Positions 31,083 through 47,972 of a stretch of DNA of 51,056 bases are shown in pieces. A program made the translations under genes and the position numbers. Numbering within the stretch: position 1 is the first letter of the stretch; every line of letters starts with the position of its first letter. The DNA is from a virus. Under the pieces are notes generated by a model. It was given only the letters and a program-made list of their open reading frames with translations. It had not been told where the DNA came from and made no database searches. The DNA lies in IMG/VR virus record IMGVR_UViG_3300025010_000084, positions 1-51,056 of that record; one strand, written 5' to 3'.

Positions 31083-31279
31083 TAAGGATTGATTACATAG
31101 AAGAGGCAGGACAGTACTATTATCAGTGTGTAGAGGAGATTCAGTTTATGAATCTTATTGCAACTTCTATATCTTATTTCGATCATAATGATAACCTCTA
31201 TAGTATCATTCATAATGGAACTACTATCAGAAGGAGAAGAAGCGGAAAGAAAAGAATCTTTAATTATTCAATGAGTTAA
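31079..31279 (+). CDS. Small hypothetical protein (66 aa)
   Basis: Alternating strand pattern (YYYQCVEEIQFMNLIATSISYF) and an Arg-rich turn (TTIRRRRSGKKR). It overlaps the previous gene by 4 bp and abuts the next. No recognised domain. Confidence 0.55.
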   Translation: MIRIDYIEEAGQYYYQCVEEIQFMNLIATSISYFDHNDNLYSIIHNGTTIRRRRSGKKRIFNYSMS

Positions 31280-31663
31280 ATGGAAATATTATATTTATTA
31301 CCAATATTCGTTGCAATCTATTTTTATATTAAATGGAGTGATATGAATAATAATATTAAATCAGACAAAGAATATCGTGAATGTATGTCTGAGATTGAAT
31401 CGAACAGAGAAAAAATACATGAAGAATTCAGACAGAGAAATATCGAAAGACAACGATTCAGAAAAGAATTAAATGAATGTTTTATATGGTCAAAACGATG
31501 TACTGATATAATGTTTCATTTTGCTGAATATTTACCACGAGAAGTTTTTTATGACTTTATGATGTCTACAGAAATAACTGCGTATCTGCCTATCGAAATA
31601 GGTGAGATAATAAAAAAAAGGAGAGAATTAGGGATATATGATATTTCATTAATTTATGGATAG
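31280..31663 (+). CDS. Membrane-anchored coiled-coil protein (127 aa)
   Basis: One N-terminal hydrophobic helix (ILYLLPIFVAIYFYIKW, residues about 3-19) followed by a long charged helix (residues about 25-70) and a C-terminal helical part. The layout fits an inner-membrane anchored coiled coil. The ATG follows directly on the stop codon of the gene ending at 31279. It ends in TAG, so TAG serves as an ordinary stop here. Confidence 0.6.
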   Translation: MEILYLLPIFVAIYFYIKWSDMNNNIKSDKEYRECMSEIESNREKIHEEFRQRNIERQRFRKELNECFIWSKRCTDIMFHFAEYLPREVFYDFMMSTEITAYLPIEIGEIIKKRRELGIYDISLIYG

Positions 31664-31934
31664 ACGAAAATTTCTCAGGTTAATCCCTGCAGTTGTAGCA
31701 GCTGGTGTTATTGCACCAAAACTACTTATTCCAGAAGAACCTGTCAAACTTGCCCCTATGCAACTTGTACAACCTATCAATTGGAAGAACAAGTTATCTA
31801 CAATAAGAGATAATTATTATATTGGTTGTGATCCTGTAGTTTCAGATAGAGTTTATATAATGTTTACTGGAAAACAGGGATTGATCAATTTCAATAAAGC
31901 GATTGATGAATATGCAAAATATTATATTAAATGA
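31656..31934 (+). CDS. Small protein with twin-arginine signal (92 aa)
   Basis: The N-terminus MDRRKFLRLIPAVVAAGVIA fits a Tat signal: D-R-R-K-F-L-R, then a mildly hydrophobic Ala/Val core. The mature part is only about 65 residues (GCDPVVSDRVYIMFTGKQGL). A Tat signal implies folding, perhaps with a metal, before export, or mere use as an anchor. No family recognised. It overlaps the previous gene by 8 bp. Confidence 0.6.
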   Translation: MDRRKFLRLIPAVVAAGVIAPKLLIPEEPVKLAPMQLVQPINWKNKLSTIRDNYYIGCDPVVSDRVYIMFTGKQGLINFNKAIDEYAKYYIK

Positions 31935-32239
31935 TACTACTACAGATATATATTGTCGATACTTCAAAGAAAGAAAAGATACAGAAACTTCTGGATGAAA
32001 ATGAGACTATGGGCTTTGAGAAAAACAAAGTCACAAAAGCAGATCTTGATGTTAAAGAGAAACTTACTGATTTATATATTGATGAAAATGAGATCGGCGC
32101 TTTTTGGGTTGACCCGGATATAGATGATGACACTATGACAAGAGATATTATATTCTATGCTTTTGGTACAAGTTTCAGGACTCCATATACTGCTGAGAAA
32201 GTTATAATATTTAAGAATTTAATAATGAAAAAAATATGA
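31931..32239 (+). CDS. Hypothetical protein (102 aa)
   Basis: An acidic protein with a KIQKLLDENETMGFEKNKV segment and a DPDIDDDTMTRDI stretch. No recognised domain. It sits in a run of 4-bp overlaps leading straight into the glycosyltransferase cassette. Confidence 0.6.
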   Translation: MILLQIYIVDTSKKEKIQKLLDENETMGFEKNKVTKADLDVKEKLTDLYIDENEIGAFWVDPDIDDDTMTRDIIFYAFGTSFRTPYTAEKVIIFKNLIMKKI

Positions 32240-32985
32240 AGATAGCTATCCTTACACCAACAAGACAAAGACCAAAAGAGCTTTACAGGTTTTTTGACAG
32301 TATTAATAAGACTGTAAGCCGGCAAAATAAAATCTATTTCCTGTTTGGAATAGATTCAGATGATCCAGGGAAAAAAGACTATTATGATATACTTCGTATG
32401 ATGCAGGATCATAGTCATGACAATATTATAATGACCATGATTGAAGAGGAACGCCGGCCGATAGGTAAGATCTGGAATGAACTGGCCAGAATGAAAGCAT
32501 GGAACGATAGTCCTGATGTATTTATAATGGGAAATGATGATCTTGTTTATATCACACCTGATTGGGATATTATCCTTGAAGAAAGACTGATGGCAGCAGA
32601 ACATCCATTTTTCTGTTATTATTTTGATGATAGTATAAATGGTGAAAAGCATTGTGCGTTTCCTATAGTTACAAAACATTGGGTCGGGGCCCTGGGATAT
32701 TTCGTTCCTGATTGCTTCCATTTCTTCTATCATGATACCTGGGTGTTCGATATTGCAAAAAAAACAGGAGTAACAAAGTATATTCCTGAGGTAGTAATAA
32801 AACATCTTCATTTCAGTAATGGCAGTTCACCAAGAGACAATACCTACATGCAGTGGAGAAACAATGATACTCATAATGTAGATACAACAGTATTCAAGTT
32901 ATCCGATAAGAACCGGATGGCTACAGCAGAAATGATCACGGAGAGAATCGAGAAATACTTAAACCTTAAAAACACAGCAAAATGA
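32236..32985 (+). CDS. Glycosyltransferase family 2-like protein (249 aa)
   Basis: MKIAILTPTRQRPKELYRFF is the typical first strand and helix of a GT-A fold. FLFGIDSDDPGK follows at about residues 37-48, and the metal-binding MGNDDLV (DxD equivalent) at about residues 95-101. A KHWVGALGYF segment and a late IKHLHF fit the acceptor part. It should transfer a sugar from a nucleotide donor. It is the first gene of a cassette with a second transferase-like gene, radical SAM enzymes and a nucleotide-sugar dehydrogenase. Acceptor unknown. Confidence 0.8.
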   Translation: MKIAILTPTRQRPKELYRFFDSINKTVSRQNKIYFLFGIDSDDPGKKDYYDILRMMQDHSHDNIIMTMIEEERRPIGKIWNELARMKAWNDSPDVFIMGNDDLVYITPDWDIILEERLMAAEHPFFCYYFDDSINGEKHCAFPIVTKHWVGALGYFVPDCFHFFYHDTWVFDIAKKTGVTKYIPEVVIKHLHFSNGSSPRDNTYMQWRNNDTHNVDTTVFKLSDKNRMATAEMITERIEKYLNLKNTAK

Positions 32986-33203
32986 CAAACATTATTTTAC
33001 GTTATTTAAAAGAAAATATGACTTCAACTATTATCTGGCTAACAACCATTCTTGCCTGGTTACTTTGGTTCCTTGGTATACCAAGAATTGGTCACTGGTT
33101 ACTTGTATCCGGGATGACAATATTTGTACTTATAATGGTTATTGGCCAGCTTAAGGATAGGATAAAGGAACTGCAGGAGAAACTTGACAGGTTTAAGATA
33201 TGA
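32982..33203 (+). CDS. Small two-helix membrane protein with cytoplasmic coil (73 aa)
   Basis: Two hydrophobic helices (about residues 15-32 and 38-56) and a short charged C-terminal helix (KDRIKELQEKLDRF). The 4-bp overlaps with the transferase genes on both sides tie it to that cassette, so it may anchor a transferase or flip a lipid-linked sugar. A holin would also have this topology but the position argues against it. Confidence 0.6.
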   Translation: MTNIILRYLKENMTSTIIWLTTILAWLLWFLGIPRIGHWLLVSGMTIFVLIMVIGQLKDRIKELQEKLDRFKI

Positions 33204-34069
33204 TAACATACGCGGTCTACCGGTGTCTCTATGGGGAAGATTACATTCAGGAATCTATATTATCGATCATTGATCACGTTGATAGAATATTTGTATTCTG
33301 GACAAACAAACCCTGGGGAAATGTATCTGAGTGTATATATAAAGGTGTAAAGATTAAGTTTCCTGAGAAGTTTGATGACGTGGTTCAAAAGATCAGGGAT
33401 CTTAATAATTCGAAGATAATCCTTATCGAGCAGACTAAAGAGATGAATCCTTATTCCGTACCCTGGAATCTTTACACCACACTTATAAACAACTATGTCA
33501 TTCCCAATCATGGCAAACCTGATATATTTATTATCCCGGAAGTTGATCATGTATTTCGAAAGGACCAGGTTGAAGCATCCTTTAATGAGTTTATCGAGAA
33601 AGGATATCAATCCGCGAAGACAAAACAGGTAGAGTTATGGAAGACTCATTTATTTCGTATTCCGGAAAGACCAGCCAGGACAGGAGTAGTATTCTGGAAC
33701 ATGACAAACTTATCAAAATTACCGGTAACAAAAGGAAATGGAGAGACAAGTAACATAAAAGTCCTCAATAGCTTTGTTCATAATTTCGGATTTGCTATAT
33801 CAGAGAAGGTGATGTACTGGAAGCATCTTACAGCCCTCGCGTTCTCTGCCGTGATAAGAGACTCGATCCCTGATGAAAACTGGCTTGATATGTGGATGAC
33901 ATGGGATTATGAAACTAATAACAGGGATCTTGAGATATCAAAACAATACAGGTCCTCAATATCCCGTGCAATACCATATAATGGAAGGGAGTTGCCGGAA
34001 AAAATCTTACTCAAAATATATAATGAAACAAATCCTTCTGATATCGCCGCATTCTTCGAACAGACTTAA
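33200..34069 (+). CDS. Glycosyltransferase-like protein (289 aa)
   Basis: N-terminal ITYAVYRCLYGEDYIQESILSII and HVDRIFVFWTNK suggest a GT-A-like Rossmann core; IFIIPEVDHVF (residues about 110-120) contains the E-x-D metal motif position. The C-terminal part includes FAISEKVMYWKH and GRELPEKI. Probably a second sugar transferase. The assignment is weaker than for the gene at 32236. Its 3' end overlaps the next gene by 47 bp. Confidence 0.6.
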   Translation: MITYAVYRCLYGEDYIQESILSIIDHVDRIFVFWTNKPWGNVSECIYKGVKIKFPEKFDDVVQKIRDLNNSKIILIEQTKEMNPYSVPWNLYTTLINNYVIPNHGKPDIFIIPEVDHVFRKDQVEASFNEFIEKGYQSAKTKQVELWKTHLFRIPERPARTGVVFWNMTNLSKLPVTKGNGETSNIKVLNSFVHNFGFAISEKVMYWKHLTALAFSAVIRDSIPDENWLDMWMTWDYETNNRDLEISKQYRSSISRAIPYNGRELPEKILLKIYNETNPSDIAAFFEQT

Positions 34070-35513
34070 TGAAAGCAGGTATGTAAGTCCTGCTATGGGT
34101 GTTAACAGGATAGCAGGAGTACTTAATGCCAATGGTCATTATGCAGAGGCATTCGATCCTAACCTCCATGATCTTAGTGATTCTTATATGTCTGTTGAAG
34201 ATAAACTCAAAGAGAAAGATTGGGATATAATAGGATTCTCCTGTCTTGAAGAGACACTTGCTAAAGATCTCAGTAATGTTTGGACCACAAGAGATATTCT
34301 TCCAAATGCAATGCTTATTGCCGGTGGCATAGAAGCTCAGTACAACTACCAGACAATACTCGATAAGTCTCCATGCGATATAGTTGTAATTGGAGAAGGA
34401 GAGATGCCTATGCTATTAATATGTGATGAGTATGATCTTGAGTTAATACCCGGAATAATCATTAAGAATAAAGCAAGAAGTCTAAGCCAGGAAGAATTCG
34501 AGATATTTACTTCTCAGATAGATTGGGAAAATATAAATTATGAAACATATTGGGATTATTATCTTAAGAAATATGGAGACAATATTACCGATGAGATACT
34601 TCAGCAGATCTATACAATAAGGATATACTCGCGTAACATGTGCCCTCATCATTGTAAGTTCTGTACATCTACGAATCAGTTACCTGATGCTGCAGGATGT
34701 AATGTAGTTTCTTATGGGATTGATGCCGATATATTGACGGATCTGATCTTAAGAATAAGGAAGGCACATCCTCTTGTACGGACCATATATATTACCGATG
34801 ACGATTTTTGCATCAATAAGAAAACTGTTATGCAGTTCTGTCAAAGAGTAATTGATAAAGGACTTGATGATTTATCGTACATGTGTTTTGCCCGGGCCGA
34901 TGATATCAATGACGATATCCTTCCTATAATGAAAAAGGCAGGGTTCAGAAGACTCAATATCGGTATAGAATCATTCTCCGATAATGTACTTATTGAGATA
35001 GGAAAAAAGTGCACTGCAGAAAAGAATATCGAAGCACTTGTCAAATTGAAGGAATACAATATTGAAACATTCATGACATTGATGCTTATAACACCCGGAA
35101 CGCTATTATGGGATCTTGAAGAAACAATAGAGAAGACAATAGAATTTATTCAGGATCCTTTTTATACATGTGGGTTATCATTGGGGATAAGACCTACAAA
35201 AGGTTCTCAGTTCTATGAAGAGTATTTTGATTTTGAAACTTATGTCACTAAAATTGAAAATACAGGAAACAAAACTATCTTTATAAAAGAGAACAAGATG
35301 ATATATGCTATCGACTCTACAGTTAAAGAGATACAGATAGAATATAAAAACAGGGAAGGGATTTATATGAATAAGATATTAAGAGAAGAAAAAATCAAAC
35401 ATGCCACTTATTCTAATATTGCCCACTATCAATTGAAGCTTTTACAGGTATGTATAGATGTTGTAAGATATAGACTTGGTTATCCTAAGAGACTATGGAG
35501 AATACGATTATGA
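34023..35513 (+). CDS. B12-binding-type radical SAM protein (496 aa)
   Basis: I start it at the ATG at 34023 (MKQILLISPHS), 47 bp inside the previous gene. Residues 1-130 form a Rossmann-like cobalamin-binding-type domain (LISPH, GFSCLEETL, IVVIGEGEMP). The radical SAM motif is C207-x3-C211-x2-C214 (CPHHCKFC), followed by YITDDDF and GIESFSD, typical of the family. The B12 His motif (DxHxxG) is not visible, so actual cobalamin binding is uncertain. Such enzymes methylate unactivated carbons or rearrange sugars and lipids; in this cassette a sugar or glycolipid substrate is plausible. Confidence 0.8.
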   Translation: MKQILLISPHSSNRLNESRYVSPAMGVNRIAGVLNANGHYAEAFDPNLHDLSDSYMSVEDKLKEKDWDIIGFSCLEETLAKDLSNVWTTRDILPNAMLIAGGIEAQYNYQTILDKSPCDIVVIGEGEMPMLLICDEYDLELIPGIIIKNKARSLSQEEFEIFTSQIDWENINYETYWDYYLKKYGDNITDEILQQIYTIRIYSRNMCPHHCKFCTSTNQLPDAAGCNVVSYGIDADILTDLILRIRKAHPLVRTIYITDDDFCINKKTVMQFCQRVIDKGLDDLSYMCFARADDINDDILPIMKKAGFRRLNIGIESFSDNVLIEIGKKCTAEKNIEALVKLKEYNIETFMTLMLITPGTLLWDLEETIEKTIEFIQDPFYTCGLSLGIRPTKGSQFYEEYFDFETYVTKIENTGNKTIFIKENKMIYAIDSTVKEIQIEYKNREGIYMNKILREEKIKHATYSNIAHYQLKLLQVCIDVVRYRLGYPKRLWRIRL

Positions 35514-36508
35514 GAAATATAGACATATATACTTCAACAGGATTGAAGTTTTTCAGACATAAATCTCAGATGGAGAATTACAAAAAAGGTTATTCACGAA
35601 CAATAGTCTCAACTCATATATCACCTGAAGGCCGATGTAATCTTAAATGTAAGTATTGTAGTGTTATAAAAAGGGCAAAACATGAACGATTAGAACTCGA
35701 TGTTATTAAAAGATACATTGAAGATGTAGTTGATCTTGGCTGTAAAGCTGTCATATTAACCGGTGGTGGTGAACCTACATTATATCCTCAGTTTGATAAA
35801 CTTATTCATTTACTCAGAAGTCACAGATCTGGAATAAAAGAAATAGCTCTTATAACAAATGGAACAACCATACCTTATATATATATGTATCCTTTCTCCT
35901 GGGTGCGCGTAAGTGTCAATTATGATGATTACTGGATACGCTCCTTCATGGATAATAGTAAGCAATTTGGAAAGAATACCACTGTAGGACTGAGTTTCGT
36001 TTATTCAGGGGAAAATAAAAGATTCGCTCCGGATGATCTTGTAACAATAGCGGATCATATAAATGCAAAGTATATCAGGGTACTTCCAGATTGTCTGCAA
36101 ACAGACGAAGAAATTGAAGATAGTTATAAAGAGATCGATCAATGGCTTGGAAGAGAATATGACAACAGGTTCTTTATTCAACATAAGAAGAAAGAAGCAC
36201 CAGTAAGTAATATCTGTCATCAGTCATATTTTCGTCCATATTTAAGTGAGATCTTTGGTGGCATAGTATTTCCTTGTGATAGCATACCATTAAACGATAA
36301 TTCAGGATATTTTGATATGAAATATGCATTATGCGTGGCAAAAGATATAAAGCAATATATGAGTAGAAGTATAGATCAGCCTTTCAATGCAAACAGAGAT
36401 TGCCAGGGATGTGTATTCACTCATAATGTCAATATGCTTGAAGGGTTTATGCATAACGATAATCCTATATGGATCAAAGAAAAGATTGAATATGAAAACT
36501 TTATATGA
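35510..36508 (+). CDS. Radical SAM protein, MoaA/SPASM-like (332 aa)
   Basis: The ATG at 35510 overlaps the previous TGA (ATGA), so I prefer it to one 15 bp upstream. The motif is C43-x3-C47-x2-C50 (RCNLKCKYC), then ILTGGGEPTL (the GGE-P SAM-binding motif) and ITNGT. Near the C-terminus several Cys (CHQSYF, FPCDSI, and NRDCQGCVF) suggest an auxiliary FeS site of SPASM/twitch type. It probably acts with the neighbouring B12-type enzyme on a small or carbohydrate substrate. It overlaps the methyltransferase by 4 bp. Confidence 0.8.
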   Translation: MRNIDIYTSTGLKFFRHKSQMENYKKGYSRTIVSTHISPEGRCNLKCKYCSVIKRAKHERLELDVIKRYIEDVVDLGCKAVILTGGGEPTLYPQFDKLIHLLRSHRSGIKEIALITNGTTIPYIYMYPFSWVRVSVNYDDYWIRSFMDNSKQFGKNTTVGLSFVYSGENKRFAPDDLVTIADHINAKYIRVLPDCLQTDEEIEDSYKEIDQWLGREYDNRFFIQHKKKEAPVSNICHQSYFRPYLSEIFGGIVFPCDSIPLNDNSGYFDMKYALCVAKDIKQYMSRSIDQPFNANRDCQGCVFTHNVNMLEGFMHNDNPIWIKEKIEYENFI

Positions 36509-37134
36509 TGGAAAAGTACGATGAGGATTATTACATCAGGGGATTAGAAACGGGAAAGAGTCTTTATTCTCAGTACCGGTGGATGCCTGAATTAACAATA
36601 CCATTGGCATACAGACTATCAAATGAACTTGTAATACTTGATGAAGATACCATCTTGGATTTTGGTTGCGCAATGGGATATCTTGTTAAGGCTTTCCGAT
36701 TACTTGGTTTTAATGCCTATGGATATGATATAAGCGAATATGCTCTTGAGAATGTACCTGTTGATATAGATGAATATATTTATAGCGGAGAATTCTGGAA
36801 AAAGAAAAGATGGAACTGGATCATCTGTAAAGATGTTCTTGAGCATATTGGTTATGATAAGATCAATGATATAATAAAAGAGATCCGATCTTGTTCAGAT
36901 AATATCTTCGTTATAGTACCACTGTCTAATAATGGCATGACATATAACGAACCAGCATACGAACTTGATTCAACACATATAATAAGAGAAGATATTACAT
37001 GGTGGAGTAATACATTCCAGAGTCATCTTATTGAAGTAGTATGGTCCGGATATAGTATGAAAGGGATAAAAGAGAACTGGAACTCGAATAAAGAATCTAA
37101 TGGATTTTTTAAACTTAAAACTCATATATTATGA
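36505..37134 (+). CDS. Class I SAM-dependent methyltransferase (209 aa)
   Basis: Motif I is ILDFGCAMGYLVKAF (residues about 50-64) with an acidic residue ending the second strand (AYGYDISEYAL). Then comes CKDVLEHI, which matches the motif typical of the UbiE/type-11 group. The N-terminal YDEDYYIRGLETG is common in sugar O-methyltransferases of glycan clusters. Coupled to both neighbours by 4-bp overlaps. Confidence 0.8.
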   Translation: MMEKYDEDYYIRGLETGKSLYSQYRWMPELTIPLAYRLSNELVILDEDTILDFGCAMGYLVKAFRLLGFNAYGYDISEYALENVPVDIDEYIYSGEFWKKKRWNWIICKDVLEHIGYDKINDIIKEIRSCSDNIFVIVPLSNNGMTYNEPAYELDSTHIIREDITWWSNTFQSHLIEVVWSGYSMKGIKENWNSNKESNGFFKLKTHIL

Positions 37135-39650
37135 AAATCGGTTTTGTGGCTTTAGGTAAGTTGGGCTTGCCCTGTGCTCTCGCTGTAGAGTCAAGAGGCT
37201 ATCAGGTATGTGGATATGATGTTAATCCACAAATACAAAGATACATCGATGAAAAGAAGATTCCGTATCGCGAAGAGGGAGCGGAAGAGTTACTTCAAAA
37301 AACGAAAATAGAAGTAAAGAATCTATTTTCTGTGCTTACAGAAAGTGATATCTGTTTTGTATCTATCCAGACACCACATGATCCCAGGTATGAAGGAATA
37401 ACACCTCTTCCGAAAGAAAGGGTGGATTTCGACTATTCATATCTTATTGCCGGAATGAAGGATATCATTCAGGAGATTGTTCATTATAATGAATATATAA
37501 ATGGTATGATTTTGGATGGAATGTCTGATGAAACAGAAAGGAAGCAATTCGTTGTAAGTATAATATCAACGGTGCTTCCCGGAACGATGTACCGCGAGAT
37601 ATTTCCTTTAGTACCAAAAGAATTAACTAATCTACATATTGTTTATAATCCATTCTTTATTGCAATGGGTACTACAATACAGGATTTCCTTTATCCGGAA
37701 TTCGTTCTCCTGGGGGTTGATGATCCTTATGCTGCAGAAATTGTTAAGGATTTCTATAAAAAAGTATTAAATCCATTTCCACGGGAAGCTGATTATTTTC
37801 CTAAAGTGTTTGAATGCTCTATCAATACAGCTGAGGCAATCAAGGTCCTATACAATACTTACATTACAGGTAAGATCTGCTTTGCTAATGCAGCTATGGA
37901 GTTATGTGAAAAGACCGGAGCCGATGTGGATCATCTTATTGATGCTTTATCCTTAGCTGATAGGAGAATCATTTCAGCTTCATATATGAGAGCAGGAATG
38001 GGGGATGGAGGCGGCTGTTTTCCTGCAGGACAACTTGTAATGACATATAATGGAATGAAACCTATCGAAGAAATAAATGAAGGAGACATGGTGCTTTCGG
38101 GAAATGGTGAATTTTGCAAAGTAATAAAAACATATGTAAGGGATTATGAAGGAGATATGATTTTGTTAAAAACAAAAGGACTTCCTCATACATTAATGAC
38201 TGCTGATCATCCTGTTATTGCTTCAACTGATTTGAGAACAAGGGTTCCTGATGGGAGAAGGAATACTTTATTAAAGATATCAGAATTGATGTCAGATGAC
38301 AATGAGATAAAAGCATCAGATCTAACATATGATAATATGTTGTATTGGCCTAAGATTAACGAAGGAAGAGAACCTGGAATGCCTCCTGAATATCTTGAAC
38401 TTGCAGGTTGGTATTTAAGCGAGGGATCTCTTGAATTAAATTCGAGAAGGGGAAGAATAAGATTCGATTTGCATGCAAAAGAAATGATGTATGCTGAACG
38501 AATTAAAGAATTAATTGAAAGAATAACATCAGAGAGATTTGGTCTTATTCCAAAAAGGAAAAATTTAAGAGGTCTTTTTTCAAGAGTTACTATTAAAATA
38601 GAAGGGAATAGTTTATCTGTAAGATTTGGATCAAAAAGACTTGCAGAATTATTATTTAATGATTTTGGTAAAGGCGCAGCTACAAAATATATTCCTCCTC
38701 AAATTTTATGGTCAAAACAATCGCTATTGCTTTTGAAAGGATTAATTCTTGGAGATGGACATAGAAATAAGAATGGAATTTCATATAGTACAATTTCGAA
38801 AGATCTTGCTTGGGGGAGTTTTATAATACTACATCGTCTTGATCTTTGTCCTTCGTTGAGGGTTATCCCACCAAGAGGTATTCATAAGAAAGCATATGAA
38901 GTAAGAGTTAGAAATAAATATCTTGCTTCTAAATTATGTGATATTATTGGATGGGATAAAATTGAAAATCCAGTAGACATTCAAAACTATGTAGTCACCA
39001 ATAAAGGAACTTTTCGTCATATAATACAGATACATAAAACATGGTTTAAAGGACCAGTTTATAATCTCTGGATTGATAGACATAATACTTATGTTGTACC
39101 TTGTGGTACAGTTCATAATTGTCATCCCAGGGATAATATTGCCCTGAGTCATATTGCAAAGAAACTCAATATCTCTTATGACTGGTGGGAGAATCTTATG
39201 ATGGCCCGGGAGAAACAGACAGAATGGCTTGCTCAGCTTATAGAAGATGAGTATTTCAATAATGACTGTAATCTTGATATTATGATCCTTGGCTATACAT
39301 TCAAACCGGAAACAAATCTTACCATAGGTAGTCCATCTCTTTTATTAAAAGAACTTTTATTAATTGACAGAGGGATAGACGAGAAACAAATAAAGATGTA
39401 TGATCCATGGGTTGATCCTGTATATATGTTCAGCAAGAGCAGAGAATTGGATCCAAATTCAGGTCAGAAAGAAAATGAGCTATATCAATTTCTTGGTGAT
39501 GCAAGAATATTCTTTATAGGAACTAAGCATGAAGTGTTCAGGAACTGCATGTTTCCTGCAGGAAGTATAGTGATAGATCCTTTCAGATATATTTCTGATC
39601 AGGATGGAGTAACTGTAAAAAGAATTGGGCAAGCAAAAAGTAATTCTTAA
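37131..39650 (+). CDS. UDP-glucose/GDP-mannose-type nucleotide-sugar dehydrogenase interrupted by an intein (839 aa precursor, 471 aa after splicing)
   Basis: N-extein: a Rossmann start (MKIGFVALGKLGLPCALAVESRGYQVCGYDV), VSIQTPHDP, IISTVLPGT and a NTAEAIKVLYNTYITGK segment, all diagnostic of the UDP-glucose 6-dehydrogenase family. The catalytic motif (GGxCFPKD in the family) is split: GDGGG ends the N-extein at residue 295, the intein spans residues 296-663, and CHPRDN opens the C-extein at Cys664. Splicing regenerates GDGGGCHPRDN, so the catalytic Cys is the intein's +1 residue. The C-extein ends with the third dehydrogenase domain (ILGYTFKPETNLTIGSPSLLL, MYDPWVD). The expected reaction is oxidation of a sugar nucleotide to a uronic acid. 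It closes the sugar cassette. Confidence 0.9.
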   Translation: MKIGFVALGKLGLPCALAVESRGYQVCGYDVNPQIQRYIDEKKIPYREEGAEELLQKTKIEVKNLFSVLTESDICFVSIQTPHDPRYEGITPLPKERVDFDYSYLIAGMKDIIQEIVHYNEYINGMILDGMSDETERKQFVVSIISTVLPGTMYREIFPLVPKELTNLHIVYNPFFIAMGTTIQDFLYPEFVLLGVDDPYAAEIVKDFYKKVLNPFPREADYFPKVFECSINTAEAIKVLYNTYITGKICFANAAMELCEKTGADVDHLIDALSLADRRIISASYMRAGMGDGGGCFPAGQLVMTYNGMKPIEEINEGDMVLSGNGEFCKVIKTYVRDYEGDMILLKTKGLPHTLMTADHPVIASTDLRTRVPDGRRNTLLKISELMSDDNEIKASDLTYDNMLYWPKINEGREPGMPPEYLELAGWYLSEGSLELNSRRGRIRFDLHAKEMMYAERIKELIERITSERFGLIPKRKNLRGLFSRVTIKIEGNSLSVRFGSKRLAELLFNDFGKGAATKYIPPQILWSKQSLLLLKGLILGDGHRNKNGISYSTISKDLAWGSFIILHRLDLCPSLRVIPPRGIHKKAYEVRVRNKYLASKLCDIIGWDKIENPVDIQNYVVTNKGTFRHIIQIHKTWFKGPVYNLWIDRHNTYVVPCGTVHNCHPRDNIALSHIAKKLNISYDWWENLMMAREKQTEWLAQLIEDEYFNNDCNLDIMILGYTFKPETNLTIGSPSLLLKELLLIDRGIDEKQIKMYDPWVDPVYMFSKSRELDPNSGQKENELYQFLGDARIFFIGTKHEVFRNCMFPAGSIVIDPFRYISDQDGVTVKRIGQAKSNS
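38016..39119 (+). mobile_element. Intein with LAGLIDADG homing endonuclease domain (368 aa) in the dehydrogenase gene
   Basis: Block A begins at Cys1 (CFPAGQLVMTYNGMKPIEEI). Block B is HTLMTADHPV (the T-x-x-H motif). Two DOD motifs appear: LAGWYLSEGSL and LKGLILGDGH, so the endonuclease core is present. Block F/G is YNLWIDRHNTYVVPCGTVHN, ending His-Asn, followed by Cys+1. All splicing residues (Cys1, block B His, penultimate His, terminal Asn, Cys+1) are intact. The DNA reads as one continuous open frame. The endonuclease would copy the intein into empty alleles. Confidence 0.92.
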
Positions 39651-39675
39651 TTTTATAAATCTCAATTTTATAAAA
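39649..39675 (+). promoter_or_regulatory. Doubled TTTATAAA-type element before the SSB-like gene
   Basis: ATTTTATAAAT (about 39650-39660) and TTTTATAAAA (39665-39674), about 16 bp apart. The same doubled element occurs at three other boundaries in the late region. It is a candidate late promoter or regulator site; the standard TAnnTTTG box is absent here. Confidence 0.45.
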
Positions 39676-40118
39676 TGCAAATTTATACAGAGAAAGGAAA
39701 GATCTATAAGATCATGGAGCCACAGGTTAAATCAGATAAGTTCAAAAAGCAGGAACTTATTATCCAGGTCAACAACCCTACCGAAAAAGGGACATTCATT
39801 GAATACTTGAGATTCCAATGTATCAATGAAATAATGAGTCAGTTAGATGGTGCAAAGAAAGGAGACTTTGTAATCTGTAAGTTTAAGATCTCCGGGAGAA
39901 AGATAGGAAAGGATGAAGAAGAATCATTCTACACCAATCTTGATGTAATGGAGATCAAGATAATCAATAAGGCTGATGACATCATCAAAGCAGATATAAG
40001 ACCACAGTCTAACAGTTATTCAGATCAGTTCCCTGGAATTGATAGCGATGATGAGGATGATATATTGTCAGTGAAATCCGATAATGCTACTCCTATAGAA
40101 GATGATCTCTCGTTTTAA
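39675..40118 (+). CDS. SSB-like protein with OB fold (DUF3127-like) and acidic tip (147 aa)
   Basis: GKIYKIMEPQVKSDKFKKQELIIQV, then YLRFQCINEIMSQL, GDFVICKFKISGRK and FYTNLDVMEI match the strand order of the DUF3127 OB-fold family of Bacteroidota. The tail is Asp-rich (GIDSDDEDDIL) and ends EDDLSF, like the DDDIPF tip by which SSB recruits partners. It likely coats single-stranded phage DNA. It is first in a two-gene unit with the co-chaperonin. Confidence 0.7.
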   Translation: MQIYTEKGKIYKIMEPQVKSDKFKKQELIIQVNNPTEKGTFIEYLRFQCINEIMSQLDGAKKGDFVICKFKISGRKIGKDEEESFYTNLDVMEIKIINKADDIIKADIRPQSNSYSDQFPGIDSDDEDDILSVKSDNATPIEDDLSF

Positions 40119-40141
40119 TAATTAACTAATAACCAATATTT

Positions 40142-40570
40142 ATGAGTACAACAAAACAATTTCCGGTTAAACCTTGTAGTGACAATATAATAATAAGAAG
40201 GTTGCTTATCAAGGATGTAAATCAAAAACGTGCAGAGAAAGGCAAGCTTATACTTGCCGATGCTCCGGCTCCTAAGAATGCACTCGAAAGAGAACAAAGA
40301 GAAACAGCAGATGCACTTCGTTATGAGGTGGCAGATATTGAATTTAAGAATAAATGGGATGAGCATCCTAACCAGGGTGTTGTTATGGCTGTGGGCCCGG
40401 GAAGGGATATAGGTGGGGGGACACTCCTTAAACCATCTGTCAAGACAGGGGACCATATTCTATACCGTGGAAAGTCCGGAGAACCTCTTGTTATCTGCAA
40501 AGAGCTCTATTGGGTCATAAAGGATCATGATATATTCTGTACGGTTCCTGCAGCGAATCTCATAAAGTAA
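40142..40570 (+). CDS. GroES-like co-chaperonin (142 aa)
   Basis: The Cpn10 core is recognisable: FPVKPCSDNIIIRRLL at the N-terminus, then QGVVMAVGPGRDIGGGTLL, VKTGDHILYRGKSGEPLVI and ELYWVIKDHDIFCTV, in the order of GroES. Where GroES has its mobile loop (contacting GroEL through an IVL tripeptide) this protein has an expanded, charged insertion (residues about 31-75) with a KLILAD segment that could replace it. Phage co-chaperonins such as T4 gp31 adapt host GroEL to capsid folding, so help with MCP folding is the natural inference. It precedes the head genes. Confidence 0.8.
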   Translation: MSTTKQFPVKPCSDNIIIRRLLIKDVNQKRAEKGKLILADAPAPKNALEREQRETADALRYEVADIEFKNKWDEHPNQGVVMAVGPGRDIGGGTLLKPSVKTGDHILYRGKSGEPLVICKELYWVIKDHDIFCTVPAANLIK

Positions 40571-40610
40571 TTTATAAAACTGAAAAATATAAATTTGGAA
40601 TTTATAAAAA
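40571..40610 (+). promoter_or_regulatory. Doubled TTTATAAAA element after the co-chaperonin gene
   Basis: TTTATAAAA at 40571-40579 and TTTATAAAAA at 40601-40610, with AATATAAATTT between. It lies upstream of a terminator rather than directly before a gene, so its role is less clear than for the other copies. Confidence 0.35.
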
Positions 40611-40681
40611 TCAAGTTTACCTTTGACGAAGTAACTTGATTGCAGTATGGAGAATTATTAAATCATCGTCTTAAAAAACTT

Positions 40682-40713
40682 AAGCCAGGGGGGATGTTCC
40701 TCACCTGGCTTTT
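40682..40713 (+). terminator. Rho-independent terminator
   Basis: An 8-bp stem (AAGCCAGG at 40682-40689 with CCTGGCTT at 40704-40711), 14-nt loop, and a short T-run. It separates the SSB/co-chaperonin unit from the packaging genes, which start with a new TTTATAAA element. Confidence 0.8.
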
Positions 40714-40729
40714 GTGTATTAAATTGAAA

Positions 40730-40754
40730 TTTATAAATTTTGATTTTATAAAAT
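40730..40754 (+). promoter_or_regulatory. Doubled TTTATAAA element before the packaging operon
   Basis: TTTATAAATTT (40730-40740) and TTTTATAAAATTT (40744-40756) lie between the terminator at 40682 and the ATG at 40761. The position makes it the best candidate for a late promoter in the window. Confidence 0.5.
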
Positions 40755-40760
40755 TTAATC

Positions 40761-41174
40761 ATGCTCGCAGAAAATATCAATATCACAACAACCAGGGAAA
40801 AATTCTTTCTCGAGTATCTGATCCTCAAGAAGCCGGCTATAGATTCCATGCTCAAGCATATTACCGGTAATCGTAAGGCTACTCTTAGCGATAAACCTAT
40901 GAGAGTCCTTGCACAACTACTTTACTTTAATGATGAGTATAAGAATATACCTGAAAAGGATAGATCTGCTCAGCTTTTTTCAAGAGAAGTAAAGGAGATG
41001 ATCTGTGATAATCTTAAAATGAAGGAGCATCATCTTAATATATATATTTCTCAATTAAGAAATCTTGGCATTTTGGAAGGAAAGAATATTAAGCCGATAT
41101 TTGTAATATTAGCTGATGATCGTAGTTTAACTTTTACATTCAGGTTAAATGGACATCCACTCAAAACGAATTGA
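40761..41174 (+). CDS. Putative winged-helix protein (137 aa)
   Basis: The central SREVKEMICDNLKMKEHHLNIYISQLRNLGIL segment reads as a winged-helix unit (helix, helix, wing). Such a small gene commonly stands before the IHF-like gene in crAss-like phages, which is family knowledge, not proof. It overlaps the next gene by 26 bp. Confidence 0.55.
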   Translation: MLAENINITTTREKFFLEYLILKKPAIDSMLKHITGNRKATLSDKPMRVLAQLLYFNDEYKNIPEKDRSAQLFSREVKEMICDNLKMKEHHLNIYISQLRNLGILEGKNIKPIFVILADDRSLTFTFRLNGHPLKTN

Positions 41175-41472
41175 TCGCATATGCGAAGAAATAGCTAAGA
41201 AACACGGAATACATAAAAATACCGTTAAGATGATTGTCTCTGTTGAATTTGAGATGGTCAAGGAAACGATGAAGAAAGTTGATTCTTATAATAATTATTT
41301 CCCTTATGTGCGATTAGAATATTTTGGATGTTTCAAAGTGAAAAAAGGTAAGCGTAATTTCTTTGTAAACAAAAGTAAAAAAACAATAGAAGATGTTTAT
41401 TCTCAATCAGAACAAGGTAACGATAGAACCCAGGATGCTGTTGATCCCGGAGTTCAGGAAGATATGGGATAG
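41149..41472 (+). CDS. IHF/HU-family DNA-bending protein (107 aa)
   Basis: The first 80 residues have the HU/IHF pattern: DRICEEIAKKHGIHKNTVKMIVSVEFEMVKETM, then a beta arm around YVRLEYFGCFKVKKGKRNFF (the F-G-x-F core is well kept). The Pro-tipped arm is shorter than in HU. The tail after residue 85 is acidic. Such proteins fold DNA for packaging or recombination and are typical before terL in crAss-like phages. It ends in TAG. Confidence 0.75.
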   Translation: MDIHSKRIDRICEEIAKKHGIHKNTVKMIVSVEFEMVKETMKKVDSYNNYFPYVRLEYFGCFKVKKGKRNFFVNKSKKTIEDVYSQSEQGNDRTQDAVDPGVQEDMG

Positions 41473-41950
41473 AGATATTTCAAAGAATAAAGAAAAAGCG
41501 ACCAAACAACTCGCCTATGTTTATTTTGTGGCAGACTATAAAAGTGAGTATAATATTTATGGTATTGAAAAACGTTCCATGATATCCCGGGAAGTAATGG
41601 AAGATCCGGAATATGTAACTGATGATATTATTGAAGAAGCAATAAAGAAATATATTAAACTGCAGGAGACATCATCAATGAGATATCTTCGCAGTATACG
41701 TGACACTGTTGATTCAATAATCAAGTTCAATGAAGCTTTAAAGTTTAATAGTGACAATGATACCAAATCATATAACCCGGCCCTGGCCACTAAAGCATTG
41801 AAAGATGTAGGATCTATTGTTGAGGATCTTGAGAAATGGGAAAAAAAGATTTATGGTGAAGAGGATCAGATGTCAATACGCGGTGGTGGTAAAGTTGGTA
41901 TTTTCGAAGATACTGAGAAAGCAACATGGATGACAACAAGGCAATTATAG
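41393..41950 (+). CDS. Conserved protein upstream of TerL, possible terminase small subunit (185 aa)
   Basis: It starts 80 bp inside the IHF-like gene (MFILNQNKVTIEPRMLLIPEFRKIWDRD). A later start at 41435 is possible. The protein is helical with a KLQETSSMRYLRSIRDTVDSI segment. Position directly before TerL, overlapping it by 25 bp, is where a small terminase subunit would be expected, but no DNA-binding motif proves it. It ends in TAG. Confidence 0.55.
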   Translation: MFILNQNKVTIEPRMLLIPEFRKIWDRDISKNKEKATKQLAYVYFVADYKSEYNIYGIEKRSMISREVMEDPEYVTDDIIEEAIKKYIKLQETSSMRYLRSIRDTVDSIIKFNEALKFNSDNDTKSYNPALATKALKDVGSIVEDLEKWEKKIYGEEDQMSIRGGGKVGIFEDTEKATWMTTRQL

Positions 41951-44052
41951 AAACAGGTTATTTTAAGAATACATTACACTATAATACTGAGGTATGGCGC
42001 GAGAGCGCTTTACATTTTAACGAGTTTGAAAGATATACTAACTATCCTGTAAATGATCATCCGTCATCCAGGTATTATAAATTCTGGGAAGAAGAAGCAA
42101 GACGATCAGTATATGGATATGATATAGGCCGGGATAAGATCCCCGGCTATTTTTATTTCTACCTTAATTACAGTCCTATTTATAAAGCTATAGAAATTGA
42201 TATTCCTGATGATGAAACGGATCAGGATGCAGTCGCTAAACTTTACCAACAGGCAAAAGCAGATCGTGTTTTTACTCTTCCTGATTTCTGGGATGGTGAT
42301 TATCAGTATTTCTGGTATCTTGATGATGCAGAAGCAAATGGTGAACATGGCGTTGTAATTAAATCAAGACGTAGAGGATATAGTTACAAGGCTGGTTCAA
42401 TGTGCGATAGGAACTATTATCTTATTCCAGGATCCAAGAGTTTTGTATTTGCAGATGATAAAGCATTCCTTATTGAAGATGGTCTTCTCTCAAAAGCATG
42501 GGAGATGATGGATCATATCGAACAACATACACCCTGGGGAAAAAGAAGACAGAAGCATGATACTACAATGTATAAGAGATCATCTTATATAGTAGATCAG
42601 AAAGGTCTTAAGATTGAGAAAGGATTCAAGAGTGAAATAATGGGTATCTCAATGAAGAATGATTATCAAAAAGTAAGGGGGAAGGGTGGTAAACTTTTGA
42701 TCTATGAGGAATCGGGTAAGAATCCTAATCTTCTTCAGGCATGGAACATCTCGTTAAAAAGCATGCAACAGGGTCGTCTTACTCATGGTTTAGCCGTAAG
42801 TTTTGGGACCGGGGGTACGGAAGACTCTGATTTTATGGGACTTGAACAGTTATTCTACCAGGGTGATGCATATAATATTCATCAGGTTCCTAATATATGG
42901 GATGAAGGATCTTTGAATAGTAAGTGTGGTCATTTTGTTTCTATTGAACAGAATCTTGAAGGAGCAATGGATAAGGATGGAAATTCATTAAAAGATATTG
43001 CCAGGGAGATGGTTGATCATTCAAGGAATAAGATTATTAAAGCAACAAAGAACCCTGAAACCATTATAAGATTCATTGCAGAAGAACCACGTACACCCCA
43101 GGAAGCTGTTATGCGTATTGGTGGGACTATCTTTCCTATCAATGATCTTAAACATCATCTTAATCATCTTACTTCTAATCCTGAAAAATATGAAGAACAG
43201 GAATATGTTGGTTTTCTTGAGATAAATGAAGAGACACAAAAGATAGAATGGAAACCAAGTGCCGATCTTCATCCTATAAGAAGGTTCCCGGAACTTGATA
43301 AACGCAATCTGCAGGGTGCAATAATAATATACGAACAACCGGTTATTATAGATGGTGTTATTCCATGGGGTATATATATTGCCGGTAATGATACTTATGA
43401 TCATGATAAGAGTACTACTGATTCTCTTGGTAGTACATTCATAATGAACCGGATTACGGAGAGGATAGTTGCAGAATATACCGGTCGTCCCTCCACTGCA
43501 AATGAATATTATGAAGGAGTAAGAAGGTTACTAATCTATTACAGAGCTATTTGTAACTATGAAAATAACTGGAAAGGTTTATTTACATATTTAAATAACA
43601 GACACTCAGCACATTTACTATGTGATACTCCCAAGATAATCGTTGATAAGATATTCGATAAGTCTCTGTTAAACAGAGGTAAAGGAACGCCAGGAACGGC
43701 TCCTATACAGAAATGGGGAAGAGAACAAATACTTATCTGGCTGACAACATCTATAGAACCTGGTAGTGAAATATTAAATCTCCATAGAATCCGTTCAATT
43801 CCTTTATTACAGGAGTTAATATATTGGAATCCAAAGGGTAACTTTGATAGGGTTGATGCTTTACAGATGCTTATGATACTTAAAGAGGACATGCAGCATA
43901 TTCACCCTGATGACATGGATAAGAAACCACAAGATGCTTTAAGCCCTTTCTTTAAAAGGATGGAGATGTTCCAGGAAAAACTGAAACAGGAATCGAATCC
44001 ATTCTCAACAATCAATAAAAGACTTCAGTTAGAAAATCGTAATAAAAATTAA
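41926..44052 (+). CDS. terL: Large terminase subunit, ATPase-nuclease (708 aa)
   Basis: TerL powers DNA into the prohead and cuts the concatemer. Walker A-like KSRRRGYSYKAGS is at residues 146-158. Walker B with catalytic acids LLIYEES is at 257-263. The C-terminal RNase H-like nuclease shows GIYIAGNDTYDHDK (residues about 482-495, candidate catalytic D489). The length fits large terminases of crAss-like phages (about 700 aa). It overlaps the upstream gene by 25 bp and is followed 11 bp later by the portal gene. Confidence 0.9.
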   Translation: MDDNKAIIETGYFKNTLHYNTEVWRESALHFNEFERYTNYPVNDHPSSRYYKFWEEEARRSVYGYDIGRDKIPGYFYFYLNYSPIYKAIEIDIPDDETDQDAVAKLYQQAKADRVFTLPDFWDGDYQYFWYLDDAEANGEHGVVIKSRRRGYSYKAGSMCDRNYYLIPGSKSFVFADDKAFLIEDGLLSKAWEMMDHIEQHTPWGKRRQKHDTTMYKRSSYIVDQKGLKIEKGFKSEIMGISMKNDYQKVRGKGGKLLIYEESGKNPNLLQAWNISLKSMQQGRLTHGLAVSFGTGGTEDSDFMGLEQLFYQGDAYNIHQVPNIWDEGSLNSKCGHFVSIEQNLEGAMDKDGNSLKDIAREMVDHSRNKIIKATKNPETIIRFIAEEPRTPQEAVMRIGGTIFPINDLKHHLNHLTSNPEKYEEQEYVGFLEINEETQKIEWKPSADLHPIRRFPELDKRNLQGAIIIYEQPVIIDGVIPWGIYIAGNDTYDHDKSTTDSLGSTFIMNRITERIVAEYTGRPSTANEYYEGVRRLLIYYRAICNYENNWKGLFTYLNNRHSAHLLCDTPKIIVDKIFDKSLLNRGKGTPGTAPIQKWGREQILIWLTTSIEPGSEILNLHRIRSIPLLQELIYWNPKGNFDRVDALQMLMILKEDMQHIHPDDMDKKPQDALSPFFKRMEMFQEKLKQESNPFSTINKRLQLENRNKN

Positions 44053-44063
44053 ACCATACTGCA

Positions 44064-46517
44064 ATGGCAACTACAATGACTATTTACCAATTTCCTTCTC
44101 AGAAAAAACTACTTCGTGAAAAAACAGAAGAATGGGGTAAGGAATGTATTGAGGCTGGCCTGACAATAACCAATGGCGATACAAGTAAGATTCGTAAATC
44201 CCGGGTTGCAAAACAGATCAACTATGATCTTATAAATGGGATCATTGATGAGAGTGACATAGAGAAGGCATTTAATCCTATGGGAATAAAAGGAGTTAAC
44301 TTTCCTGCAAAGATCCAGAACTATCCTATCGAACTGACAAAGTTCAATGTACTAAAAGGAGAAGAGGGGAAGCGCAGGTTTGAATGGCGATTACGAAGTG
44401 TTAACCCGGATGTTGTCAGTGAGAAAGAGTTCATGATGAGGGAACAGGTCTTTGGTCTTATTTCCCAGGAGATAACCAGTGGTGGATATAATGAGGAACA
44501 GGTTGCCCGAAGGTTAAAACAATTACAACATTATCATAATTATGAATACCAGGATTACGGTGAAGTGATGGGCCAACGGATCCTTGATTATTTCTGGTAC
44601 ACTCAAAAGCTTAAGAACATATTCTCAGATGCTTTTTATGATGTTCTTGTTGGTGCCGAGGAAATATATGAGGTGCCAATACTGCATGGAGAACCGGTTG
44701 TCAGTAAACGGAATGTACTTAATATATCAACATTTGGAGGAGGAGATAGTTATAAGATAGAGGATTCAGAGATAATCATTGACAGCGGTTATGTTCCTAT
44801 CGGGAAGGTTATTGATGATTATTGGGATGTCCTTACTTCTGATGAGATTGACACCTTGGAAATAGGAGCCCGGGAAAATAGATTTGCATCAAACATAGTA
44901 TTCAGTGGACCCGTTGACAGAGATGAACCTAATGTTCGTGGTCTTGGTGCCACACAACTTATTACTGTTGATGGTCCTGATGCCCGTAACTTTGGTGGAC
45001 AGTTTGATTCAGAAGGAAATATCTTCGTTGCGAAGATTGTATGGAAGAGCAGACGTAAGATAGGGAGATTGACATATTATGATCCTAAAGGAGATGAACA
45101 GGAGACTATCGTTGATGAGAACTTCCCTATCGATCAGTTTAAGAATCTTGGCTGGAAGATCGATTGGAGATGGATAAATGAATGGTGGCAGGGGCATAAG
45201 ATAGGAGTTGATATGTATAAGCGTATTGAGTCTCTTCCCAGGATAGGAAGTAAGTTTTCCAATCCGTCAATATGTCTTCCGCCATATATAGGAACAATAT
45301 ATTCGATAGGTGGAGGCACAGGTGTATCGCTTATGGACCGTGTTAAACCATATAAATACCTTTATAATGTATACATGCGCAGGACGGAACTTGCATCGGC
45401 ACGTAATAAAGGAGTTATTGCAGAACTGGACCTGGCAGAGATTCCTGATGGATGGGATGAGGAACTTGTAATGATGTATGCAGAGGCCAATGGATACATG
45501 GTCACTGATTCGTTCAAGGAAGGTAAAAAAGGTATTGCCCAGGGTAAATTGTTGTCTACGATAAAACAAAGGAATTCCAATGTTCTTAATCTCAATAGTT
45601 CAGAAGTTATTCTTGCTAATCTTAAACTGGCACAATATGTAAAAAATGAACTTGGTGAAGTAGCCGGTATTACTCCTCAACGCGAAGGACAGATTGATAA
45701 CAGGGAAACATATGGAGGAGTAGAAAGATCCGTTACCCAGAGCTCACATATTACTGAAGAATGGTTTAGGGTACACGATAATACAAAACTTCGTGTACTT
45801 GAATGTCTTCTTGAGACAGCCAAGTATGCATGGAAGAATGCAACAGGAGAGAATATTAAAAAACTTCAGTATGTTGATGATGGTATGATAACACATCTCT
45901 TTGAAGTTGACGGAAGGAAGTTTGCTGAAACGGATTATGGCTATTATATATCCGATGGACAGAATGATGCAGAACTCATAGCAGCGATAAAACAATTATC
46001 TCTTGCAGCTCTTCAGAATGACAAGGCTACATTTAAAGATCTATTTACAATATATCGTGATACAAGTGTCGCTGGTATGATCCGTAAACTTGAAGATAGT
46101 GAAGAACAACGCAATCAAAGAGAAGATGATGTACGTAAAGAACAACTTGAAAGCCAGGAAAGAATTCAACAGGCATTGAATGAACTTGAACTCATGAAAC
46201 TTGAACAGGCAGAAAGAATTGAGAATAACCGGCTTGATGCTGAGATCTACATGAAAGAGATGCAGATAGAAGTTGAATACGCTAAGCTTGGAGAAGATAA
46301 GGATCTCGGTAAGATCACGGATGATGAATCAGAAAAACGCGAGTTTGAACTTGAAAAGCTTCGCCTGCAGCTCGCGCAGCGTAAAGAAGAGATGAAAGAG
46401 AAGATCCGACAGTTCAATGAGAAACTTAAAGAACAAAGAAATATCGTGCGAATGCAGGTTCAGAGTGCTGAGAAAATCGCGAGATCAAGACCAAAACCTG
46501 CAACTATAAAAAAATAA
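44064..46517 (+). CDS. Portal protein (817 aa)
   Basis: Portal proteins form the dodecameric ring through which DNA enters the head. The call rests on position directly after TerL, length (about 800 aa, usual for crAss-like portals), a DVLVGAEEIYEVPILHGEPV core and a VAGITPQREGQIDNRETYGG segment, and a C-terminal coiled coil (residues about 680-810: Glu/Gln/Lys-rich) that fits the barrel or tail helices of a portal. No close homologue comparison was possible. Confidence 0.8.
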   Translation: MATTMTIYQFPSQKKLLREKTEEWGKECIEAGLTITNGDTSKIRKSRVAKQINYDLINGIIDESDIEKAFNPMGIKGVNFPAKIQNYPIELTKFNVLKGEEGKRRFEWRLRSVNPDVVSEKEFMMREQVFGLISQEITSGGYNEEQVARRLKQLQHYHNYEYQDYGEVMGQRILDYFWYTQKLKNIFSDAFYDVLVGAEEIYEVPILHGEPVVSKRNVLNISTFGGGDSYKIEDSEIIIDSGYVPIGKVIDDYWDVLTSDEIDTLEIGARENRFASNIVFSGPVDRDEPNVRGLGATQLITVDGPDARNFGGQFDSEGNIFVAKIVWKSRRKIGRLTYYDPKGDEQETIVDENFPIDQFKNLGWKIDWRWINEWWQGHKIGVDMYKRIESLPRIGSKFSNPSICLPPYIGTIYSIGGGTGVSLMDRVKPYKYLYNVYMRRTELASARNKGVIAELDLAEIPDGWDEELVMMYAEANGYMVTDSFKEGKKGIAQGKLLSTIKQRNSNVLNLNSSEVILANLKLAQYVKNELGEVAGITPQREGQIDNRETYGGVERSVTQSSHITEEWFRVHDNTKLRVLECLLETAKYAWKNATGENIKKLQYVDDGMITHLFEVDGRKFAETDYGYYISDGQNDAELIAAIKQLSLAALQNDKATFKDLFTIYRDTSVAGMIRKLEDSEEQRNQREDDVRKEQLESQERIQQALNELELMKLEQAERIENNRLDAEIYMKEMQIEVEYAKLGEDKDLGKITDDESEKREFELEKLRLQLAQRKEEMKEKIRQFNEKLKEQRNIVRMQVQSAEKIARSRPKPATIKK

Positions 46518-46645
46518 TTTATAAAATTTAATTTTATAGTTTTTATCTATAGAAGTATTTTTTTAAAAAGACTCGTGTATGGTGATACTCTTGTCTGGTA
46601 TTAATCTAATTTCTAAACTTGTATTAATTTAAAGGAGAATTTTAA
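46518..46645 (+). promoter_or_regulatory. Intergenic promoter region before the scaffold-MCP genes
   Basis: Contains a TTTATAAAATTTA element (46518-46530) followed by TTTTATAG, then TTG (46591-46593), 20-nt spacer and TAAACTTG (46614-46621), a near match to the TTG/TAnnTTTG promoter. A strong ribosome-binding sequence AAAGGAG (46632-46638) precedes the ATG at 46646. This is the only sizeable gap among the head genes, so transcription of the capsid genes is probably boosted here. Confidence 0.5.
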
Positions 46646-47947: not shown

Positions 47948-47972
47948 CTTAATCGTTCTAAATTAAATAAAA

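What the first reader, a model, noticed from the sequence alone, without database searches (positions are those of the whole stretch)
38016..39119. Complete intein inserted exactly at the catalytic cysteine of a phage nucleotide-sugar dehydrogenase
Seen: Cys1 at residue 296, block B TADHP, two LAGLIDADG-type motifs, terminal His-Asn and Cys+1, inside an otherwise ordinary dehydrogenase. Known: the family's active site is GGxCFPKD with a nucleophilic Cys. Here the unspliced protein ends the N-part at GDGGG and the catalytic Cys becomes the intein +1 residue, so the enzyme should be inactive until splicing. Because Cys is also the splicing nucleophile, oxidising or metal conditions could in principle delay both. 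An intein in this enzyme family is recalled from Methanocaldococcus jannaschii; a phage example would be unusual.
Basis: partly seen in the sequence, partly recalled or inferred. Interest (0 to 1): 0.8.

Follow-up and report, generated by a model that had tools for sequence, protein, structure and literature searches.

The report
Self-splicing insert in phage sugar-nucleotide enzyme
A phage gene for a sugar-nucleotide-oxidising enzyme carries a self-removing protein insert placed exactly at the enzyme's catalytic cysteine; this one is an ordinary kind of insert, but the same spot in related phage genes has been hit repeatedly by quite different inserts, including split ones with an endonuclease gene in the middle.

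Summary
ORF 37131-39650 is a phage nucleotide-sugar dehydrogenase interrupted at 38016-39119 by a complete 368-aa class-1-type intein with a LAGLIDADG homing endonuclease. The predicted structure matches intein-endonucleases of the VMA/PI-SceI type (Foldseek E 1e-17). Joining the flanks gives a 471-aa enzyme (GMGDGGG|CHPRDN). Its Cys296 aligns with the catalytic cysteine of solved relatives. Syntenic relatives carry the empty site with no extra base.

The extein's catalytic Cys is the intein's +1 residue, so the precursor should be inactive until spliced. But 'a phage example would be unusual' is wrong. Fifty IMG/VR contigs (two of them this same virus) carry an intein at this exact Cys: three contiguous LAGLIDADG inteins, about 44 split inteins (most fully sequenced ones with an endonuclease gene in the gap), one fused mini-intein and one unrelated mini-intein. 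Extein trees reject a single intein-bearing clade. A UDP-glucose dehydrogenase intein ('udp') is already published in archaea and bacteria; whether it sits at the same Cys was not tested. Redox or metal control has no evidence here.

The window intein is a new member of a known kind. The hotspot, with several architectures at one catalytic residue, is the more interesting result. Splicing was not tested experimentally.

The parts
37131..39650 (+). Precursor ORF: nucleotide-sugar dehydrogenase with intein, 839 aa
   Evidence: Pfam PF03721/PF00984/PF03720 and TIGR03026; phrog_9148 UDP-glucose dehydrogenase E 4.5e-66
37131..38015 (+). N-extein, 295 aa, ending ...RAGMGDGGG; contains Lys238 and Asn242 (aligned with hUGDH K220/N224)
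38016..39119 (+). Intein, 368 aa, HINT splicing domain plus LAGLIDADG endonuclease
38016..38018 (+). Intein Cys1 (first splicing nucleophile; block A CFPAGQLV)
   Evidence: invariant in A2
38199..38210 (+). Block B Thr62-Ala-Asp-His65
   Evidence: T62 and H65 invariant in the three site homologues
38400..38426 (+). First LAGLIDADG motif LAGWYLSEG (acidic residue Glu136)
   Evidence: E in window and L099, G in L088
38721..38951 (+). Pfam LAGLIDADG_3 match, with second motif LLKGLILGDG (38730-38759, Asp247)
   Evidence: D in window and L099, H in L088
39057..39119 (+). Blocks F and G: VYNLWIDRHNTYVVPCGTVHN, ending His367-Asn368
39120..39647 (+). C-extein, 176 aa, starting with Cys296 (catalytic Cys and intein +1), CHPRDN; Asp300 follows
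   Evidence: catalytic Cys aligned with GMD Cys268 in 1mfz
36505..37134 (+). Neighbour: methyltransferase; same gene order in empty-site relatives L003/L005/L006
35495..36508 (+). Neighbour: radical SAM protein, syntenic in L003/L005/L006
41926..44052 (+). Terminase large subunit (phage identity), intein-free here but intein-bearing in L003/L005/L006

Best explanation
A class-1-type, LAGLIDADG homing intein invaded the phage nucleotide-sugar dehydrogenase gene between the codons for Gly295 and the catalytic Cys296. The whole 839-aa precursor is translated. The intein's Cys1 and the extein's own Cys296 (+1) serve as the two splicing nucleophiles, Asn368 cyclises with help from His367, and the flanks join to give the 471-aa enzyme with its catalytic Cys restored. 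The endonuclease domain would cut the empty site (the conserved GGNATGGGNGAYGGNGGNGGN|TGYCAYCCN stretch) in co-infecting phages and spread the element by repair. It keeps this site because the encoded residues are catalytic: the target cannot drift and only precise loss is tolerated. Shown: sequence anatomy, fold prediction, empty sites, homologues at the identical site in unrelated extein lineages. Inferred: splicing, endonuclease activity, homing.
For: Intact splicing residues and single open frame. Predicted fold, pLDDT 77 from 6 sequences, matches TliVMA intein 7qsu (E 1.1e-17), PI-SceI, PI-PfuI and I-DmoI. Homologous inteins at the same Cys in L088 and L099 whose exteins do not form a clade with the window's (AU p 3e-8). 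Both LAGLIDADG acidic residues kept in window and L099, lost in L088, as expected of a homing cycle. Clean in-frame empty sites in syntenic relatives. Exact Cys alignment to solved enzymes. Same virus assembled with the intein in a second record, 100% identical over the compared 31131-45119, and partly in a third. Preference of inteins for conserved sites is published (PMC2814812).
Against: No splicing or cleavage has been measured. All copies of this exact intein are identical, so no selection test is possible. No near-identical empty allele was found (nearest 65% identity), so recent homing is not shown. The quick trees have long branches (L099, L209), so L099's position is unsure.
Confidence: 0.9

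Rival explanations
1. Conditional switch: splicing is held back by oxidation, metals or host state because Cys1 and the catalytic Cys+1 are both reactive thiols, so the phage times activation of the enzyme by splicing.
For: The catalytic Cys is the +1 residue. Dual use of an enzyme residue as splicing residue, and redox or zinc control, are published for other inteins (PMC6195587, PMC7360933).
Against: Nothing in the sequence is specific to control. Close relatives manage without the intein. Patchy distribution and different unrelated inteins at the site fit a selfish element better. PMC6195587 says redox inhibition is not universal.
Confidence: 0.1
2. Decayed insert: the intein no longer splices and the dehydrogenase is dead.
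For: No direct evidence; splicing untested.
Against: All known splicing residues intact, full open frame, extein catalytic residues Lys238, Asn242, Cys296, Asp300 intact.
Confidence: 0.05
3. Assembly or chimera artefact.
For: One short contig (L080) begins 3 nt before the C-junction, which could reflect an assembly break there.
Against: A 94-kb record carries the same insert, 100% identical through it; homologues occur at the same codon in other viruses.
Confidence: 0.01

Closest known systems
'udp' intein of UDP-glucose 6-dehydrogenase in Halobacteria, Methanocaldococcus and others (PMC4071816)
   Same: Intein in the same enzyme superfamily; reported across archaea and a few bacteria.
   Different: Cellular rather than phage. 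Its insertion residue and its similarity to this intein could not be checked here. The phage enzyme belongs to a GGGCHPRDN-type subfamily only about 25% identical to classical phage UDP-glucose dehydrogenases.
Intein in phage P1 Dmt (DNA cytosine methyltransferase part)
   Same: Closest relative found in isolate genomes: full-length 24% identity, LAGLIDADG type, inserted just before the enzyme's catalytic Cys (GGTP|C...HN|CQAFS).
   Different: Different host enzyme; also widespread in P1-like plasmids.
VMA inteins / PI-SceI (TliVMA 7qsu, PI-SceI 1vde)
   Same: Best structural matches: HINT domain with inserted LAGLIDADG endonuclease.
   Different: About 15% identity; different host gene and target.
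Fractured genes with split inteins (Dassa et al. 2009, NAR gkp095; known here only from citations and memory)
   Same: Most of the relatives at this site have that layout: N-half + N-intein, free-standing endonuclease gene, C-intein + C-half.
   Different: The window's intein is contiguous. In the relatives the endonucleases resemble T7 endonuclease I or homing-endonuclease families (L115), and the host gene is a sugar-nucleotide enzyme; from memory the 2009 set was DNA synthesis and repair enzymes.

Membership tests
Class 1 intein | Cys/Ser at position 1, block B TxxH, penultimate His, terminal Asn, Cys/Ser/Thr at +1 | tested here: met
   C1, T62..H65, H367, N368, C+1
Class 1 intein | HINT fold | tested here: met
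   model pTM 0.74, full-length matches to TliVMA and PI-SceI; Pfam Hint_2 only below cut-off
Class 1 intein | Precise in-frame insertion relative to empty alleles | tested here: met
   syntenic empty sites in L003/L005/L006 with no extra or missing bases
Class 1 intein | Protein splicing activity | not testable with these tools
   needs expression
LAGLIDADG homing endonuclease | Two LAGLIDADG motifs with acidic catalytic residues | tested here: met
   E136 and D247; PF14528 above cut-off
LAGLIDADG homing endonuclease | Cuts the empty site | not testable with these tools
   needs purified protein
UDP-glucose/GDP-mannose dehydrogenase family | Three domains with catalytic Lys, Asn, Cys, Asp | tested here: met
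   PF03721 and PF00984 over cut-off, PF03720 just under it (28.6 against 30); substrate not known
'udp' intein allele of cellular UDP-glucose dehydrogenases | Same insertion residue and intein phylogeny | not tested
Fractured gene / split intein | Host gene and intein broken into two ORFs, endonuclease gene between | tested here: not met
   window ORF is continuous; the layout is met in many relatives at the same site

The most novel reading that the evidence does not exclude
The catalytic-Cys codon of phage GGGCHPRDN-type nucleotide-sugar dehydrogenases is a repeated landing site. Unrelated inteins have settled there several times and exist as fused mini-intein, split without endonuclease, split with a T7-endonuclease-I-like or other homing endonuclease gene in the gap, and contiguous LAGLIDADG. 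That gives a natural series at one residue for how inteins lose, gain and swap endonucleases and become split.
Probability: 0.65. Interest if true: 0.72.

Novelty: new member of a known kind. Interest (0 to 1): 0.55.

Why it matters
The enzyme's catalytic residue doubles as a splicing residue, so enzyme activity reports splicing directly and the element cannot be lost imprecisely without killing the enzyme. The many architectures at one site in related phages offer natural comparisons for how split inteins and 'fractured genes' arise, and a supply of new split inteins for protein engineering. Many of these dehydrogenase genes are likely missed or annotated as two broken genes.

Tried and rejected
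Single-sequence structure prediction was useless (pLDDT 37); repeated with a 6-intein alignment. Searching plasmids with the intein gave mainly P1-like methyltransferase inteins. A DNA pattern for a classical HN|C.PKD junction in 398 genomes of one archaeal phylum found nothing; this does not reach the methanogens. About 50 cellular homologues of the extein were all uninterrupted. Dassa 2009 is not in the library. No held paper describes an intein in a phage nucleotide-sugar dehydrogenase; the library is partial, so this is weak evidence of novelty. Pattern hits L084, L097, L104, L231, L236 and L238 were chance or empty sites and were dropped. A one-origin reading of all intein-bearing exteins was rejected.

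Full report
WHAT IS THERE. The window is a tailed-phage record (terminase, portal and major head protein families at 41926-49457). ORF 37131-39650 encodes 839 aa. Residues 1-295 and 664-839 are a UDP-glucose/GDP-mannose dehydrogenase family enzyme. Residues 296-663 (nt 38016-39119) are a 368-aa intein. The intein has Cys1, TADH, two LAGLIDADG motifs with acidic residues Glu136 and Asp247, His367-Asn368 and Cys+1. AlphaFold2 on six inteins gave pLDDT 77 and pTM 0.74. Foldseek against the PDB finds TliVMA intein, PI-SceI and PI-PfuI over the whole chain, and I-DmoI over the endonuclease part.

WHY IT IS AT THE CATALYTIC CYS. With the intein removed the sequence reads GMGDGGG|CHPRDN. In phmmer alignments Cys296 falls on Cys268 of GDP-mannose 6-dehydrogenase (1mfz), and Lys238/Asn242 on Lys220/Asn224 of human UGDH; that these are catalytic is established knowledge of the family. 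Across 22 aligned relatives the columns GMGDGGGCHPRD are invariant. So the precursor has intein sequence where the catalytic Cys loop should continue, and activity before splicing is unlikely (inference).

EMPTY SITES. About 78 retrieved IMG/VR relatives read straight through the site, as do about 50 homologues in bacterial and archaeal genome contigs. The nearest, L003 and L005 (65% identity), and L006 share the gene order glycosyltransferase-like, radical SAM, methyltransferase, dehydrogenase, DUF3127, Cpn10, terminase. At DNA level the insertion adds exactly the intein, with no duplicated or lost bases. The same virus is assembled in IMGVR_UViG_3300025012_000053 (100% identical over the compared 31131-45119) and in part in IMGVR_UViG_3300002727_000279.

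A HOTSPOT. DNA patterns for an interrupted site found many more. In all 50 distinct contigs, two of them the window's own virus, carry an intein at this Cys; the exact-match patterns make this a lower bound, and some contigs hold only one half of the gene. (i) Contiguous LAGLIDADG: window, L088 (351 aa), L099 (366 aa), mutually homologous at 27-35% identity. L088 has lost both acidic endonuclease residues. (ii) About 44 contigs with split inteins, at least 14 different C-halves: N-extein plus 102-107 aa, stop, then a 40-46 aa C-intein on the C-extein. Most fully sequenced gaps are 837-900 nt and hold one gene: a protein with a T7-endonuclease-I-like domain, or in L115 and its copies a protein matching a PHROG homing-endonuclease family (it looks GIY-YIG-like by eye). 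In L091 (and copies), L120 and L124 the halves are 16-30 nt apart with no endonuclease. (iii) L108, the same intein type fused, 154 aa. (iv) L209, a 150-aa mini-intein of another type ending SN|C. The window intein and L108 show no blastp similarity.

INDEPENDENT ARRIVALS. On a 30-row extein tree, holding together the three LAGLIDADG-bearing, the six split, or all intein-bearing exteins is rejected (AU p 3e-8, 4e-5, 3e-86). A larger quick tree places the window with empty L003/L006/L007 and L088 inside another empty clade. Repeated gain, or gain and loss, is needed. Branches of L099 and L209 are long and their positions uncertain.

MECHANISM. Most likely a selfish homing intein that splices efficiently: target fixed by catalytic constraint, spread by its endonuclease, decaying as in L088. 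Splicing, cutting and homing are inferred. The published preference of inteins for conserved sites (PMC2814812) and the use of an enzyme residue as a splicing residue (DnaB P-loop Ser, PMC6195587) mean neither point is new in principle. A conditional switch is possible but has no support here.

KNOWN OR NEW. An intein in UDP-glucose dehydrogenase is published: allele 'udp' in Halobacteria, Methanocaldococcus, Dictyoglomus and others (PMC4071816). Whether it sits at the same residue could not be tested. The nearest relative in isolate genomes is in phage P1 Dmt, also just before a catalytic Cys. No held paper reports inteins in phage nucleotide-sugar dehydrogenases, but the library is partial. 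The window feature is therefore a new member of a known kind; the multi-architecture hotspot is the part worth following.

Noticed in passing
L003 7940-11158; L005 10016-13234; L006 9165-12263: Terminase large subunits of the empty-site relatives carry inteins (377 aa in L003/L005; one apparently starting with Gln in L006), where the window's terminase (41926-44052) has none.
   Followed up: partly
L098 and L101: A dehydrogenase with two inteins: a contiguous one at the invariant Asn242|Thr243 (YN|C...GN|T) and a split one at the catalytic Cys.
   Followed up: partly
L109 2270-5311 (phage P1 dmt): P1 Dmt contains a full-length LAGLIDADG intein just before the cytosine-methyltransferase catalytic Cys (GGTP|C..HN|CQAFS); the same intein is in over 100 P1-like plasmid records.
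   Followed up: partly
L083, L085, L087, L098, L102, L110, L118, L121, L127 gaps: Gap ORFs of about 265-286 aa with a T7-endonuclease-I-like C-terminal domain lie between the halves of split inteins; candidate homing endonucleases.
   Followed up: partly
L080 1-4873: Contig identical to window 39117-43989 that begins exactly at the last codon of the intein; could be an assembly break at a polymorphic site, or chance.
   Followed up: no
L193 1573-5937: A portal-like open frame holding two LAGLIDADG inteins.
   Followed up: no
L069 1-2280: A radical SAM protein interrupted by a HINT element with an HNH-like stretch.
   Followed up: no
window 32236-37134: Glycosyltransferase-like, B12-binding radical SAM, radical SAM and methyltransferase genes stand directly upstream of the dehydrogenase, suggesting a phage glycan- or sugar-modifying cassette.
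   Followed up: partly
window 20987-21568: Phage ORF with a bacterial DnaA C-terminal DNA-binding domain (Pfam E 2e-16), next to genes of unknown function.
   Followed up: no
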